DNA of 64,000 bases from Herbidospora daliensis. GTDB lineage: Bacteria > Actinomycetota > Actinomycetes > Streptosporangiales > Streptosporangiaceae. Position 1 is the first letter of the stretch. The number at the start of each line of letters is the position of its first letter. The DNA lies in NCBI RefSeq assembly GCF_001570585.1, contig NZ_BBXF01000001.1, positions 1,419,691-1,483,690 on the forward strand, written 5' to 3'. Made by a program: the position numbers and the translations under genes. Below, in pieces: positions 18,700 to 22,714 of this stretch. The notes below the pieces were generated by a model. It saw only the letters and a program-made list of their open reading frames with translations. It was not told the DNA's origin and made no database searches.

Positions 18700-18772
18700 G
18701 GGGCTATAGCGCAGCTGGTAGCGCACCTCCATGGCATGGAGGGGGTCAGGGGTTCGAATCCCCTTAGCTCCA
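18700..18772 (+). tRNA. tRNA-Ala (anticodon GGC)
   Basis: A full cloverleaf: acceptor GGGGCTA pairs with TAGCTCC, the D-arm is GCGC...GCGC, anticodon stem CCTCC/GGAGG encloses ATGGCAT with anticodon GGC, and the T-arm is AGGGG-TTCGAAT-CCCCT. The discriminator is A and no CCA is encoded, as usual in actinomycetes. A TAGACT hexamer at 18680-18685 could be the -10. Eight bases after the gene, a stem-loop begins that is also the 5' hairpin of repeat copy 1. Confidence 0.97.
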
Positions 18773-18780
18773 CTCACTCG

Positions 18781-19029
18781 GAACGGCCCATGGTCGTCGC
18801 CCCTTCGGGGCGGCTTTCATGGGCCGTTCTCGTTTGCGTATACGGGGGGACGACCCCCCGAACCCCCCGATACGAGAGGGCTGTCGCCCCCTCGCGCTCC
18901 CCCTGGTCCGCTGTCGCGGCCCTGGCGTCGCTGTCGCTCCGGGGTCGCTTTGCTCCCTGGCGAAAGGCTTCGCCCCTCGCACTCCCTGATAGGGCCTCGC
19001 TTCGCTCGGCTGGAGCTCGCTTCGCTCGT
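18781..19029 (+). repeat. Structured repeat, copy 1 (abuts tRNA-Ala)
   Basis: First of four same-orientation copies. It opens with a 12-bp stem (18781-18792 with 18818-18829) enclosing the hairpin CGCCCCTTCGGGGCG. Next come a G-run/C-run hairpin, the invariant box CGATACGAGAGGGCTGTC, several short hairpins (GGCGAAAGGCTTCGCC type) and a tail with two CTCGCTTCGCTCG units. Placed directly after the tRNA, the first hairpin could end its transcript. No open frame is conserved between copies. Confidence 0.85.
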
Positions 19030-19300
19030 ATTTGACTTCCGGCTACTCAAAAAGCGGCAGAAGTGCCGCGAACGCCCTGATGACGAGCCAGCATGTGTCG
19101 ATTGCCGACGCGATCGACAGGGGCACGACTTAGGCCAGAAACTACTCATCACACGGAGAAAGGCGCTCACCGGCCTCCAGTGAATACTACTGCCCTACGC
19201 GTCCGTGGAGATTTGATCTTCTTGCAGGCGCGTCAGAGAGTCGGCGGGCTTGCTTGTCCGGGGTGACGCGGCCCTCGTCGGCGGCTTAACTGTTAGCGTG
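19030..19300. other. Intergenic, no gene seen
   Basis: Between repeat copy 1 and the toxin-antitoxin promoter. The sequence is of lower GC than the flanking core genes and contains no open frame I would defend on either strand. Confidence 0.5.
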
Positions 19301-19316
19301 GTACGGAGTAGTACGG
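19301..19316. promoter_or_regulatory. Tandem GTACGG operator candidate before vapBC
   Basis: GTACGG occurs twice with a ten-base period (one helical turn), about 25 bases upstream of the antitoxin start and just after a TTAGCG -10-like hexamer. VapB-type antitoxins usually repress their own promoter, so this spacing suggests the autoregulatory site. Inference from position. Confidence 0.4.
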
Positions 19317-19340
19317 GCCGGTGCGGAGGGAGGCCGAGTG

Positions 19341-19628
19341 ATGGGCGGCAAGTCTCAGCCCGTGGATGTCAGCGTGCGGCAGTTCGTCAGTGACTCAGGG
19401 AGTGTGACGCGAGGGCTGCGACGCGGGCAGCGGTATGTGTTGACGATCAACGGTGAGCCGCTCGCGGATGTCGTTCCCATCAAGCGTCGGCGTGCTGTGC
19501 CCATGACGGAGGTACTCGCGATCTTCGCTGGCGCGCCTGCCCTCGACGTCGACGAGCTGCGCGCGGATCTGGACGCCGGTATCGATCAAGAGTTGCCCGA
19601 CGACCCGCTGGAGGGAACCGGTCTGTGA
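19341..19628 (+). CDS. VapB/Phd-type antitoxin
   Basis: 95 residues from ATG 19341, with a GGAGGGAGG ribosome-binding site (a GTG directly before it is an alternative start). The N-terminal half, VDVSVRQFVSDSGSVTRGLRR then YVLTINGEPLADVVPI, matches Phd/YefM-type DNA-binding antitoxins. The acidic C-terminus (DVDELRADLDAGIDQELPDD) is the usual toxin-binding part. It overlaps the toxin start by four bases. Confidence 0.8.
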   Translation: MGGKSQPVDVSVRQFVSDSGSVTRGLRRGQRYVLTINGEPLADVVPIKRRRAVPMTEVLAIFAGAPALDVDELRADLDAGIDQELPDDPLEGTGL

Positions 19629-20047
19629 GACATGCGGAAGGTGTACTCGATACGAACATCGTGGCTGTGTTGTCTCTCTATGAGGCAGATGCACTTCCGC
19701 AGGCGGGTCTCATCACCGCTGTAACCCTCGGTGAGCTGTCAGACGCGCCACATGCAACGGTCGATCCGATCAGGCGTGCTCGGCGTATGGCGGTCCTTCA
19801 GCATGTAGAGGCCACGTTCGACGCGCTGCCCTATGACGACGAAGCCGCGCGCATGTATGGCCAGATCTGTGCGGCCGTCCGCGCGACCGGCCGGCAGCCA
19901 CGCGGCAGGGCCGCTGATCTGATGATCGCCGCGATCGCCGCGAGCAACGGGCTTCCCCTGTACACCGCCAATCCGAAGGACTTCGCCGGGCTCGACGGCA
20001 TGGTGGAAATCGTGGCTGTGGCGCGGCCTTCAGGAGCAACCGCGTAA
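19625..20047 (+). CDS. VapC-type PIN-domain toxin
   Basis: 140 residues, GTG start coupled to the antitoxin. The PIN acidic residues are in place: D9 in GVLDTNIV, E37 in TLGELSD, D98 in AADLMIAAIA and the terminal TANPKDF. VapC toxins are Mg-dependent ribonucleases, often cutting tRNA or rRNA. It sits in the accessory region just 3' of a tRNA gene and upstream of repeat copy 2. Confidence 0.88.
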   Translation: MRHAEGVLDTNIVAVLSLYEADALPQAGLITAVTLGELSDAPHATVDPIRRARRMAVLQHVEATFDALPYDDEAARMYGQICAAVRATGRQPRGRAADLMIAAIAASNGLPLYTANPKDFAGLDGMVEIVAVARPSGATA

Positions 20048-20171
20048 CTTACTCGAACTTGGATGGAGACCGCAGCCGAAGGCGGACTCGCCAAAATAAT
20101 GAACTGACTGTGCGCGACGACCACAATTAGAGTTACTTCACATGCCTTCGTAGCCCTGTGGGAAGGTTTTG

Positions 20172-20454
20172 TGTTCGAGTTAGCGACCGCTAGATCCACG
20201 GGTAATGGGGATGGCCTGTGGTTGTTGCTCCTTCGGAGCACCTTCCACGGGCCATTTCCCGTTTGCGACACCGGGGGGACGACCCCCCGGAACCCCCCGA
20301 TACGAGAGGGCTGTCGCCCCCTCGCGCTCCCCGTGGCCGCTTTGCGGCCCTGCGTCGCTTCGCTCCGGGTCGCTGTCGCTCCTGGCGAAGGGCTTCGCCC
20401 CTCGCGCTCCCTGATAGGGCCTCGCTTCGCTCGGGAGGCACTCGCTTCGCTCGG
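20172..20454 (+). repeat. Structured repeat, copy 2
   Basis: The core runs 20198-20454. The outer stem ACGGG/CCCGT (20198-20202 with 20258-20262) and inner stem ATGGCCTGTGG/CCACGGGCCAT enclose GCTCCTTCGGAGC. The invariant box CGATACGAGAGGGCTGTC and the TCGCTTCGCTC tail units follow. About 25 bases upstream of the core is GTTCGAGTTAGCGACCG, resembling a tRNA T-loop and shared with copy 3. Confidence 0.85.
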
Positions 20455-20547
20455 GGTGATGGACTTCAGGCCGCATCAAAGGGGCAGGTGACGTGTCGTT
20501 TCACCTTCGGAGTGACTGACTGTGTTTTGGCCGGCGGATGACGCCGG

Positions 20548-20970
20548 CTAGAGGGCGCCGCAGAACAAGTCCCAGATATTTCGGTAGTAGTCGTTGAACT
20601 CGACGATGAACTGACTCCCGCCGGATTCGGGGTCCTTGAAGTAGACGGACACCATCACGTCGTTTTGGAAGCCGGGGATTTGGGCCTTGCTGTAGTGGTC
20701 GCGGATTTCCTGTGGGGGAAGAGTGGTCAGCATTGTGATCCTCACCCGGTATTCACAGTAGTCTCCGCCGCCTCCTGACATATTGTGGCCGGATGTCGCG
20801 TCATGCCTGTGGTGGAAATCGCGCGTATGCGGTGGGCGCGGGTAGCTGACCGCCTTTTGGAGCAAGGCGTCGAGACGTGCGTCGTCGCGCCAGACGGGGG
20901 TCATGATCAGGAAGAATAAGCCGACCAGCGGCACAAGAACGACCGCCAGACACCCCCACCTTCGTTTCAT
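20548..20970 (-). CDS. Small membrane-anchored hypothetical protein
   Basis: 140 residues from ATG 20970. One N-terminal helix (GCLAVVLVPLVGLFFLIM) anchors an extracytoplasmic domain ending SQFIVEFNDYYRNIWDLFCGAL. No family is recognised. Codon use is less G/C-rich than core genes. It is isolated between repeat copies 2 and 3 and has no convincing ribosome-binding site. Confidence 0.6.
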   Translation of the reverse strand: MKRRWGCLAVVLVPLVGLFFLIMTPVWRDDARLDALLQKAVSYPRPPHTRDFHHRHDATSGHNMSGGGGDYCEYRVRITMLTTLPPQEIRDHYSKAQIPGFQNDVMVSVYFKDPESGGSQFIVEFNDYYRNIWDLFCGAL

Positions 20971-21051
20971 GACGTGAAGCGTAATGCTTTTGATCAAGGG
21001 CGGCGATGGCTACCGGCGTGCGATGGGCGGAGATCGATTCCAGGCGTGGCC

Positions 21052-21311
21052 GAGTTCGAGTAGGCGACCGTTAGCTTCACTGGTGAATGGATGGCCCGTG
21101 GCTGTTTCCCCTTCGGGGCACTTGCCACGGGCCATTCACCATTTCTGCACACGGGGGGGACGACCCCCGAACCCCCGATACGAGAGGGCTGTCGCCCCTT
21201 CACGCTCCCTCTGGCCGCTTTGCGGCCCTGCGTCGCTTCGCTCCGGGTCACTGTCGCTCCTGGCGAAGGGCTCCGCCCTCGCGCTCCTTGGAAGGGCCTC
21301 GCTTCGCTCGG
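21052..21311 (+). repeat. Structured repeat, copy 3
   Basis: The core starts at 21081. Stem ATGGCCCGTGGC (21091-21102) pairs perfectly with 21124-21135, and an outer TGGTGA (21081-21086) pairs with TCACCA (21136-21141) across a duplicated ATGG bulge. The inner hairpin is CCCCTTCGGGG. The invariant box and the TCGCTTCGCTC tail follow. A tRNA-like stretch (GTTCGAGTAGGCGACCG, then TTAGCTTCACT) precedes it; the tRNA-Ala 3' end reads TTAGCTCCACT. Confidence 0.85.
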
Positions 21312-21391
21312 TTACTGGGCTCAACACCGATTCAGGCAGGGGAAGGGACGGCTCGCATTGTGGCTCCATGCTGGCCTGACTTGAATGCGCT

Positions 21392-22174
21392 TCATTGTCG
21401 TCGGCCGTGCCGTGTTCTGCTCCACCGGAGCCGTATAGCGGTGGTGGCGATGAGGAGGGAGGCCGCCGCCGCACTGACCTGCCGGGTTCGGGAGGTGCGC
21501 TGGGGGTTGGCCGCGCTGGTCGCCAGTGCCCATGTCGCGGCCAGAGCGATGGAGGTGTGACCGTGCCGACTCGCCGCGATGATCGTGCTCAGGACGACTG
21601 CGGCTCCCGCTACGGCGAGACGAGCGGTATTGCGCCCGGTTCGGGTCGTGGGCGCGAACTTGCCGTGTCGCTGGACCGCGAACGCGTTGACGACGGAGGC
21701 GACGCTCGTCCACCCCAGGAGCAGGCCGGTGCTGTGGGTGGTCAGGCGCTCGGCGCCGCGCGGCTGGTCGTGCTGGGCCTTGCGGTGTGCGGTGGCGGCG
21801 AGGCCCGCGGCCACCGGGAGGATGAAGGGTGTGTAGCGAAAGCGGTTCGACTGGGCCGCGATCGACCAGCAGGCGTTCGCCGTGTAAGCGCCGACGAGCC
21901 ACCATCCGGTGCGTCGGTTGACCGCGGCGGTCGGGTGCGCGGCGTGCTGGATGGCGTTGGCGGCGATGACTGCGAAAATCGGCGCCCAGATCGCGAAGGC
22001 GTAGTCGGGAGGAGTGATCTCGGTATCGAACTCCTCGGCGCCTTCCCGGGTGTCGGCGAGAAACGGGCCGAGCGTCGGGACAAGGATCATCATGGCGGCG
22101 GTGGCCCCCACGGCGACGGTTCGCGCGCGGTCCGCCGCTTCTGTGTCGGCTTCGATATCGATCGGGAGGATCAT
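21392..22174 (-). CDS. TspO/MBR-related multi-pass membrane protein
   Basis: 260 residues from ATG 22174, with a GGAGAACC ribosome-binding site. About seven membrane helices follow a short acidic leader. The segment ITPPDYAFAIWAPIFAVI resembles the start of tryptophan-rich sensory/TspO-like proteins of the longer bacterial type, whose ligands are unclear. It stands alone between repeat copies 3 and 4. Confidence 0.55.
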   Translation of the reverse strand: MILPIDIEADTEAADRARTVAVGATAAMMILVPTLGPFLADTREGAEEFDTEITPPDYAFAIWAPIFAVIAANAIQHAAHPTAAVNRRTGWWLVGAYTANACWSIAAQSNRFRYTPFILPVAAGLAATAHRKAQHDQPRGAERLTTHSTGLLLGWTSVASVVNAFAVQRHGKFAPTTRTGRNTARLAVAGAAVVLSTIIAASRHGHTSIALAATWALATSAANPQRTSRTRQVSAAAASLLIATTAIRLRWSRTRHGRRQ

Positions 22175-22338
22175 GTCGGTTCTCCTTCCATCCAGTCGTG
22201 CGGGCTCTCGCGGGTGGTGCCGGGGTGTTCTTCCCGGCGGTCGCACGGTGAGACGGTGGCGAGTAGTCCGATCGTGAGGGAGCTACCCGTCACAGTCACC
22301 GTCACCGGCCCTCTCCCGCACCGCGCTCCCGAGGTTGC

Positions 22339-22455
22339 TCAACGCCTGGTTCGCGCCCGCACGCGGGTCCACTCGCCCTCGTTCCCGATGTCCATCACCA
22401 CCAGCGGCGACGAACCCGAGAACACCACGCCGACCAGCTCATCAAGATCAATCAC
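22339..22455 (-). pseudogene. Short orphan coding remnant
   Basis: A 38-codon frame beginning VIDLDELVGVVFSGSSPLV and ending ARTRR. It reads like real protein (balanced composition, alternating hydrophobic pattern) but is too short for a domain I recognise. It may be a remnant of a larger accessory gene or a small unknown protein. Confidence 0.3.
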
Positions 22456-22506
22456 GACTCACTGTGACGCGGCCAGACGTCTGGTCGTCACCGAATCTGC
22501 GACAGA

Positions 22507-22714
22507 TCCCCTTCGGGGTGCTTGCCACGGGCCATTCACCATTTGTGGCACACACGGGGGAAGATCCCCGAACCCCCGATACGAGAGGGCTGTCACCCCT
22601 TCGCGCTCCCCCTGGCCGCTATCGCGTCCTTGCGTCGCTGTAGCTCCGGGTCGCTTCGCTCCTGGCGAAGGGCTCCGCCCCTCGCGCTCCCTGGACAGGA
22701 CTCGCTTCGCTCGG
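22507..22714 (+). repeat. Structured repeat, copy 4 (5'-truncated)
   Basis: The copy starts at the inner hairpin CCCCTTCGGGG. The 3' arm CCACGGGCCATTCACCA is present but its 5' partner is missing, so the main stem cannot form. The invariant box and downstream hairpins are retained, ending with CTCGCTTCGCTCGG. Confidence 0.82.

What the first reader, a model, noticed from the sequence alone, without database searches (positions are those of the whole stretch)
18781..22714. Four copies of a structured repeat family with compensatory base changes
Copies at 18781-19029, 20198-20454, 21081-21311 and 22507-22714, all in the same orientation, share the invariant box CGATACGAGAGGGCTGTC and an ordered series of hairpins. 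The opening stem covaries. Copy 1 uses ACGGCCCATG/CATGGGCCGT while copy 3 uses ATGGCCCGTG/CACGGGCCAT, two paired changes. The outer stem is ACGGG/CCCGT in copy 2 and TGGTGA/TCACCA in copy 3. The inner hairpin is CTCC/GGAG in copy 2 and CCCC/GGGG in copies 1 and 3. Pairing is kept while sequence changes, so a folded RNA or DNA hairpin is under selection. No protein frame is conserved. I know of no named element with this design.
Basis: seen in the sequence. Interest (0 to 1): 0.85.

Follow-up and report, generated by a model that had tools for sequence, protein, structure and literature searches.

The report
tRNA-anchored cassette boundary repeats
The repeated hairpin sequence is the tail that follows a transfer-RNA gene (a terminator-like hairpin plus a GC-rich block), probably copied each time a small gene cassette, some with toxin-antitoxin-like genes, was inserted behind that gene in this actinomycete.

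Summary
The four copies are real, but not a stand-alone RNA. Each is the 3' tail of a tRNA gene: a terminator-like hairpin plus a ~180-bp GC-rich array. Copy 1 follows tRNA-Ala(GGC); copies 2 and 3 follow a site resembling that tRNA's 3' end; copy 4 is truncated. The genome is a Herbidospora.
Of 121 copies examined in seven Herbidospora genomes, 60 lie behind an intact tRNA or tmRNA gene on the same strand. Another 29 lie behind a tRNA 3' half (96-100% identical) cut at positions 27-33, the mark of site-specific integration. Behind array-bearing tRNAs the DNA differs between species (homologous in 2 of 161 pairs; array-less controls 9 of 19). At tRNA-Gly(CCC), cassettes of about 0.6-3.5 kb recur in different orders; some carry toxin-antitoxin-type genes.
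The compensatory changes are genuine but sit in the terminator-like hairpin (11 of 16 pairs). The array has one covarying pair of 22 and folds no better than shuffles.
Best reading: boundaries of integrase-less cassettes accreted at tRNA genes, a known kind. New are the conserved terminator-plus-array module and its array core shared across two families. Movement and the array's role are unproven.

The parts
18700..18772 (+). tRNA-Ala(GGC) gene, presumed target of the integrations
   Evidence: Rfam RF00005, 65.7 bits; ARAGORN calls tRNA-Ala(ggc) in the matching loci of other genomes
18781..18833 (+). copy 1, terminator-like hairpin of the tRNA tail
   Evidence: MFE -42.5, z -6.66; covariation; not called by the consensus scan
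18843..19029 (+). copy 1, GC-rich array
   Evidence: BLAST family; folds like shuffles
19338..19628 (+). first gene of interval 1, small ORF overlapping the PIN gene; antitoxin by position only
   Evidence: ORF; no Pfam, NCBIfam or PADLOC match
19625..20047 (+). second gene of interval 1, PIN-domain VapC-like protein
   Evidence: Pfam PIN 24.9 bits over cut-off 23.6; NCBIfam VapC models below cut-off
20173..20199 (+). variant attachment core in front of copy 2, resembling the 3' end of tRNA-Ala
   Evidence: pattern with up to 3 mismatches also in held loci of five of the six other Herbidospora genomes and of one other genus; not found by the tRNA BLAST
20204..20263 (+). copy 2, terminator-like hairpin
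   Evidence: z -7.33; tail 98.6% like a displaced copy in G006
20272..20454 (+). copy 2, GC-rich array
20548..20997 (-). gene of interval 2, 149 aa, no family match; a relative lies in front of the matching copy in G003 (H. cretacea)
   Evidence: window 20551-21018 aligns at 80% with L062
21054..21080 (+). variant attachment core in front of copy 3
21088..21138 (+). copy 3, terminator-like hairpin; its tail resembles tails next to tRNA-Ala in four other species
   Evidence: z -6.03; 86-93% to tRNA-Ala tails of G001, G003, G005, G006
21152..21311 (+). copy 3, GC-rich array (short)
21392..22246 (-). gene of interval 3, 284 aa, no family match
22507..22545 (+). copy 4, remaining inner part and 3' arm of the terminator-like hairpin
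   Evidence: sequence; repeat family D6
22555..22714 (+). copy 4, GC-rich array

Best explanation
Each copy is a tRNA 3'-tail module: a terminator-like hairpin, then a ~180-bp GC-rich array. The module is the boundary of small integrative cassettes that insert site-specifically into the 3' part of tRNA and tmRNA genes. A cassette would have the order attachment core, terminator hairpin, array, one or a few genes (circular form inferred). Each insertion rebuilds the tRNA with the cassette's own tail and pushes the former tail downstream; repeated insertion gives a row such as tRNA-Ala, copy 1, PIN gene pair, copy 2, 149-aa gene, copy 3, 284-aa gene, copy 4. Shown: position behind tRNA genes, tRNA 3' halves cut at a fixed place, displaced tails, DNA behind the array that differs between species, cassettes in different orders at tRNA-Gly, and tyrosine-recombinase genes on larger islands at several of these tRNAs (not at tRNA-Ala(GGC)). 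Inferred: mobilisation in trans by such recombinases, the terminator function, and the array's role, which I think most likely is a cassette-borne attachment-arm or boundary segment that also insulates the cassette from tRNA transcription.
For: 60 of 121 copies follow an intact tRNA/tmRNA gene on the same strand (59 at 52-72 nt, one at 12); 0 of 121 have one on the other strand or downstream in the stretch examined. For the 21 copies of this genome 0.007 tRNA-linked ones are expected by chance; 7 were seen, plus one behind tmRNA. Of the other 61, 29 follow a tRNA 3' half of 40-49 nt, 96-100% identical, starting at tRNA position 27-33. tRNA-Gly(CCC) carries rows of two to five such halves in all seven genomes. 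In eight islands chosen because a displaced array was known, an integrase domain lies 0.13-1.2 kb behind the tRNA, no array follows the intact tRNA, and an array follows the first distal half 8-16 kb away in seven of eight, the second half in the eighth. Flanks: upstream homologous in 102 of 161 between-species pairs, downstream of the array in 2 of 161; array-less controls 17 and 9 of 19. A DUF433/DUF5615 cassette sits in six of seven genomes at different places of the row (families). The array tree follows tRNA type (42 changes, shuffled mean 60.4, 0 of 300 as low) rather than species (53 against 56.0, 37 of 300).
Against: No cassette was seen as a circle or moving. No integrase (PF00589) was found near tRNA-Ala(GGC), none at all on this window's contig; serine recombinases were not searched. 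The integrase islands carry no array behind the tRNA, so arrays may be native tails. Window copies 2 and 3 have a variant core that BLAST does not recognise as a tRNA half, copy 4 has none: those cassettes may be fossils or something else. 32 of 121 copies have no credible tRNA part in front (29 no hit, 3 hits of 14-17 nt), some behind protein genes. The consensus scan does not call the hairpin a terminator. Two of seven control loci keep no downstream homology and a third in only one of three pairs. The array tree is weakly resolved (65 of 108 inner branches open, bootstrap not settled). Only 9 of 30 scanned proteins, picked by eye, have toxin-antitoxin-type domains.
Confidence: 0.75

Rival explanations
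1. Native tail: the terminator plus array is a host-owned 3' flank of certain tRNA and tmRNA genes (backup terminator or insulator), and cassettes merely duplicate or displace it.
For: Arrays follow tRNA type across species; in eight integrase islands the array sits on the far, host side; intact genes found are all on the array's strand (60 of 60).
Against: DNA right behind the tRNA-adjacent array is not homologous between species in 159 of 161 pairs, so the array sits on the incoming side there too; a tree by tRNA type is also expected if the carriers are tRNA-specific; the tail next to the window's tRNA (copy 1) is unlike those next to tRNA-Ala in four other species, which copy 3 resembles.
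Confidence: 0.28
2. REP/BIME-like dispersed palindrome, spread by its own transposase or kept as a gyrase or nucleoid site behind strongly transcribed genes.
For: Palindromic start CGGGGGG-ACGA-CCCCCCG, also found repeatedly in one relative (L103); some copies behind protein genes (L055, L179, L220).
Against: No RAYT (PF01797) in this genome, while 5 of 14 control genomes have it; half the copies are tied to tRNA genes and 29 more to tRNA halves.
Confidence: 0.08
3. A structured regulatory or non-coding RNA, for instance a riboswitch.
For: Opening hairpin covaries; weak Guanidine-II hit at 20271-20321, 26 bits, E 0.027.
Against: That hit is below the gathering score of 32; the array folds like shuffles; several variants have a GCGA in place of the ACGA loop (alignment); the place is behind a tRNA, not in front of a gene.
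Confidence: 0.04
4. Relic of an insertion sequence or MITE that targets sites behind terminators.
For: Copies also lie behind protein genes, two directly after a stop codon (L055, L179).
Against: No match in the plasmid or phage collection; tRNA halves cut at a fixed place fit site-specific recombination. Terminal repeats and target duplications were not searched for.
Confidence: 0.04

Closest known systems
Tandem ssrA genomic islands of Dehalococcoides (PMC3146451, passages read)
   Same: Row of islands behind one RNA gene, bounded by repeats of its 3' end; 15 of them without an integration module, which the authors suggest might be cis-mobilizable elements.
   Different: There serine recombinases, one gene (ssrA), 20-bp repeats, reductive dehalogenase cargo; no conserved terminator-array module in the passages read.
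CIMEs and accretion of ICE/IME (PMC5704250, passages read)
   Same: Elements keeping attL/attR but without integration and transfer genes, stacked at one target.
   Different: Here most units are about 0.6-3.5 kb with one or a few genes and share a ~250-bp tail over about a dozen tRNA/tmRNA types.
Additive flexible genomic islands at tRNA genes (PMC10872708, PMC7771536, PMC5217437; passages read)
   Same: Gene cassettes added at tRNA genes, told by direct repeats of part of the tRNA.
   Different: No shared hairpin-array module in the passages read; other groups of bacteria (one of them marine actinobacteria).
Tycheposons (as described in PMC10872708; original paper not read)
   Same: tRNA-bounded elements, there with a tyrosine recombinase.
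   Different: 4-200 kb by that text; the cassettes here are small and have no PF00589 hit.
Integron cassette arrays (recalled)
   Same: Rows of small gene cassettes at one site, often with toxin-antitoxin genes.
   Different: The repeat here is a tRNA 3' part; attC sites and IntI were not searched for.

Membership tests
CIME / accreted integrative element | Flanked by direct repeats of the target gene end (attL/attR) | tested here: met
   Met at tRNA-Gly: intact tRNA and halves 31-72 bound the cassettes. In the window only variant cores in front of copies 2 and 3, so inconclusive there
CIME / accreted integrative element | No own integration or transfer genes | tested here: inconclusive
   No PF00589 hit between the window copies or in the small tRNA-Gly cassettes; serine recombinases not searched, transfer genes judged only by Pfam on 30 chosen proteins
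CIME / accreted integrative element | Shown to be mobilised with or by a neighbour | not testable with these tools
   needs an excision assay
Additive flexible genomic island | Same place in related genomes, different content | tested here: met
   control
REP/BIME | RAYT (Y1 transposase) in the genome | tested here: not met
   0 of 1 genome
Guanidine-II riboswitch | Score over Rfam gathering cut-off | tested here: not met
   26 and 23.6 against 32 bits
Intrinsic terminator (opening hairpin) | Strong GC hairpin kept by compensatory change | tested here: met
Intrinsic terminator (opening hairpin) | T run behind the stem | tested here: not met
   the scan finds none at the copies; only short runs such as CGTTT in the sequence
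Integron | IntI integrase and attC sites | not tested
   no dedicated search made

The most novel reading that the evidence does not exclude
The array core CGGGGGGACGACCCCCCGAACCCCCCG and close variants, 56-73 nt behind tRNA and tmRNA genes in at least two actinomycete families, is the shared docking arm of an unnamed, large class of integrase-less cassettes, many with toxin-antitoxin genes. They use tRNA and tmRNA genes as insertion platforms, as integrons use attI, and replace the gene's terminator at each insertion.
Probability: 0.35. Interest if true: 0.78.

Novelty: new variant of a known kind. Interest (0 to 1): 0.6.

Why it matters
It turns an unexplained repeat into a possible marker for integration hot spots in actinomycetes: where the array follows a tRNA or tmRNA gene, the DNA behind it usually differs between species. 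It also offers a system in which one attachment module can be compared over about a dozen tRNA/tmRNA types, and asks how small cassettes without a recombinase gene are shuffled.

Tried and rejected
Rfam at gathering and at E<=1: only the tRNA over cut-off; weak Guanidine-II and mascRNA hits below it. RAYT: none. Plasmid and phage collections: no match in distant mode at E 1e-5. PADLOC: 3 of 10 proteins matched, two Fic and one Gp49. NCBIfam: 1 of 10, the PIN gene, below cut-offs. Terminator scan: three sites, none at the copies; shuffles mean 2.5. Idea that arrays are homogenised within a genome: not supported for the 83 tRNA-linked rows (species labels 53 changes against 56.0 shuffled, 37 of 300 as low), but for all 111 rows species labels cluster (64 against 73.3, 1 of 300). 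Native flank right of the farthest tRNA-Thr copy of G003: only 27 bp match G000, so the native flank was not found there. The 7-kb G006 contig with two variant cores (L033): no site-specific recombinase among five proteins tested; one is a DDE transposase.

Literature: searches listed no paper on this repeat; of the papers listed I read only passages of six. Most subscription journals are not in that library, so this is not proof of absence.
Full report
What the sequence shows. The four copies lie on the plus strand at the given places. The 18-nt box is exact in all four, and shuffles of the window give 0.14 matches on average with three mismatches allowed. A tRNA-Ala(GGC) gene, 18700-18772, ends eight bases before copy 1. 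The whole genome (8.52 Mb, 18 contigs) holds 11 places with the box at up to two mismatches and none for the reversed control pattern, and 21 BLAST copies of the 190-nt core, with 40 of 42 candidates scored. All eight named contigs found with a longer box are Herbidospora (Streptosporangiaceae); their lengths equal those of contigs of the handles G001 to G006, so I read G001 as yilanensis, G002 sakaeratensis, G003 cretacea, G004 galbida, G005 solisilvae, G006 mongoliensis.

Where copies lie. In seven Herbidospora genomes BLAST gives 155 matches (G000 21, G003 30, G004 17, G006 30, G002 25, G005 21, G001 11); 40 candidates were scored per genome of 48-72, and a few matches are pieces of one copy. 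I examined 121: the 21 of this genome and 100 of the 102 others listed with at least 101 bits. The two weakest of those 102 were not fetched, to save calls, and 32 weaker or unlisted matches were not looked at. ARAGORN finds an intact gene on the same strand in front of 60 of 121: 53 tRNA (Ala 17, Val 15, Leu 7, Ile 6, Thr 3, Gly 3, Lys 2) and 7 tmRNA, 59 of them ending 52-72 nt before the match and one 12 nt. None lies on the other strand or downstream in the stretches used, about 520 nt before and 250 nt after. For this genome chance predicts 0.007 tRNA-linked copies within 100 nt; 7 were seen, plus one behind tmRNA. Of the other 61 copies, 32 gave a BLAST hit to a tRNA: 29 of these are 40-49 nt long, 96-100% identical, start at tRNA position 27-33 and run to the end or nearly so (distance to the array mostly 54-72 nt, but 5, 42 and 209 in three); three are short hits of 14-17 nt that I do not count. 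29 gave none, among them window copies 2, 3 and 4. A repeated 3' half cut at the anticodon loop is the usual trace of tyrosine-recombinase integration (general knowledge).

Rows of halves. Behind tRNA-Gly(CCC) all seven genomes have further 3' halves: five each in G001 and G002, four in G004, three in G003 and G005, two in G006 and G000. Spacing is 0.3-3.6 kb, apart from two integrase islands of 11.7 and 15 kb and a 19-kb interval in G000. Many halves are followed by terminator hairpin and array, some are not. A DUF433/DUF5615 cassette occurs in six of seven genomes (G002, G003, G001, G005, G006, G000) at place 3, 1, 2, 4, 2 and 3 of the row, the integrase island counted as one place; Pfam was run on two of them, the others are by DNA similarity. 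A 151-aa gene cassette is in G002, G005 and G006 (91-96%), a SUKH cassette in G002 and G001 (93%). Order differs: the 151-aa cassette comes before DUF433 in G002 and G005, after it in G006 (Pfam).

Cargo. I scanned 30 of the 67 ORFs with Pfam, chosen by eye and partly because they looked like toxin-antitoxin genes, so the share is not a frequency. Fifteen have a match over the cut-off: PIN twice, DUF5615 twice, Fic/Doc twice, DUF433, MazE and Gp49 (nine of toxin-antitoxin type), DUF6461 twice, SUKH, GNAT, glyoxalase and ankyrin. Three have only weaker matches, twelve none. Some of the 30 lie beyond the last copy or half seen. Gene calls rest on codon-position GC and are approximate.

Integrases. 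PF00589 hits stand beside tRNAs that also have a distant half. I looked at eight such places, chosen because a displaced array was already known there: G000 and G005 tRNA-Gly, G003 tRNA-Thr, G005 and G003 tRNA-Ala(TGC), G001 and G005 tRNA-Val, G001 tRNA-Ile. In eight of eight the intact tRNA has no array behind it. The first distal half, 8-16 kb away, has one in seven of eight (partial in G001 tRNA-Ile); in G005 tRNA-Gly the second half has it. One of these domains was confirmed by Pfam (L243). No PF00589 hit lies on the window's contig, nor near tRNA-Ala(GGC) in the places seen.

Flanks. For array-bearing intact genes of one type in different genomes, 250 nt upstream are homologous over at least 100 nt in 102 of 161 pairs. 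The 161 include 21 tmRNA pairs with only about 60 nt upstream to compare and pairs of non-corresponding genes where a genome has two of a type. The 230 nt behind the array are homologous in 2 of 161, one of them tRNA-Leu of G005 and G001. For seven array-less tRNA genes, taken from the score list before looking at flanks (six in three species, one in two), upstream is homologous in 17 of 19 pairs and downstream in 9 of 19, both at 20-270 and at 270-520 nt. Val(TAC) and Gly(GCC) keep none and Thr one pair at the far stretch; that Val gene bears an array in G006 (L207). Outside the genus 27 of 52 pairs keep at least 60 nt upstream and 2 keep it downstream, none both; but in those two pairs the upstream stretch was too short to judge, two loci were entered twice, and many pairs join different genera or families, where intergenic homology is lost anyway. 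Pairs are not independent.

The window locus. Upstream of the tRNA the window is collinear with G003 (14.1 kb at 88%) and G004 (14.5 kb at 93%), and also with G002; downstream the content changes. The tail of copy 3 is 86-93% like the tail next to tRNA-Ala in G001, G003, G005 and G006, but also 88% like a tRNA-Leu tail of G006. The tail of copy 2 is 98.6% like a displaced copy in G006 and 84% like the tRNA-Ala tail of G004. The tail of copy 1 is 94.6% like that of the other tRNA-Ala of this genome and about 91% like tRNA-Thr tails of G002 and G005. Tail and array together, copy 2 is nearest outside this genome to the tRNA-Ala copy of G002 (88.7% over 265 nt). This fits copy 1 as the newest tail and copies 2 and 3 as former ones. 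Copies 2 and 3 are preceded by a site of the type TTCGAGTnnGCGnnCGnTAGnTCC, whose right part differs from the last bases of the tRNA and its first flanking base (TTAGCTCCAC) at two and one positions. With up to three mismatches it also stands in front of tails in G002 to G006 and in one other genus (L098). I read it as a hybrid attachment site whose left part comes from the incoming element; that is inference.

Structure. On 43 copies, 11 of 16 pairs of the opening hairpin vary on both sides, against one of 22 pairs tested in the array (columns 85/101: G-C, C-G, U-A). For the whole structure 97.2% of cells pair and none of 500 shuffles reaches the observed values; sliding the partners gives 45-59%. 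The structure came from the same alignment, which favours it. The hairpins of copies 1-3 have z of -6.66, -7.33 and -6.03; whole arrays of copies 1 and 2 have 0.08 and 0.47 as RNA, and the other strand of copy 2 has -1.02 as DNA. I call the opening hairpin terminator-like from position, stability and covariation; the consensus scan does not.

Wider range. In 150 family genomes 49 have a match, outside Herbidospora mostly to the first 30-60 nt of the array (5 candidates scored per genome); of 24 such loci outside the genus 8 have a tRNA just in front. A 28-nt form of the array core with up to one mismatch is in 7 of 296 class genomes, two Herbidospora and five of one genus of another family, f19 (unnamed). 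Of the 12 places in f19, 10 lie behind tRNA-Ile, Ala, Val or tmRNA, two of them behind the same tmRNA. A second form of the core is in 14 of 200 order genomes; of 24 places outside Herbidospora 15 lie behind a tRNA (two places are the same as).

Interpretation. A tail and array that is found behind the intact gene, behind tRNA halves, and at the edge of DNA that differs between species is best read as the boundary module of small integrative cassettes. Whether the array belongs to the cassette or to the host tail is not settled: the flanks favour the cassette, the integrase islands the host side, and the tree following tRNA type fits both. Its biochemical role (recombinase arm, insulator, other) is open.

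Known context. The Dehalococcoides ssrA islands (PMC3146451), CIMEs (PMC5704250) and tRNA-linked additive islands (PMC10872708, PMC7771536, PMC5217437), of which I read passages found by search terms, describe the same kind of process. What I did not find described is the shared terminator-plus-array module over about a dozen tRNA/tmRNA types, its core in two families, and the small cassettes in this group.

Noticed in passing
L055 (G000 C3:624802), L179, L220: An array lies at the 3' end of what looks like the same protein gene in three genomes (directly after the stop codon in L055 and L179), with no tRNA near: an old non-tRNA insertion or a second role of the array.
   Followed up: partly
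L048, L049, L055, L056, L057, behind the array: A further shared motif of the type CGTTACGGCTCCGCC...GGCCACCCGACC follows several arrays.
   Followed up: no
L004, L008, L011 near the arrays: Direct repeats of the type GAGTGACnAACTGAGTGAC, more or less degenerate, occur near several copies; they could be recombinase or excisionase sites.
   Followed up: no
window 29827: A further site like the variant tRNA-Ala core, without terminator or array, about 11 kb downstream of the tRNA, near the start of another stretch that changes between species.
   Followed up: no
L103 (G041 C356): The array core occurs repeatedly within a few hundred bases in a family relative, like a REP cluster.
   Followed up: no
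window 20271-20321 and 18807-18858: Weak Guanidine-II riboswitch hits (26 and 23.6 bits, cut-off 32), probably due to GC hairpins with an ACGA loop.
   Followed up: yes
G000 C7:235146 and C7:237647 (L004): Two arrays 2.5 kb apart without any tRNA part, 8 kb from an integrase hit at C7:227043; the first keeps only the end of a terminator tail.
   Followed up: partly
L033:6009-6809: A DDE transposase gene on the small G006 contig that carries two variant tRNA-Ala cores.
   Followed up: no
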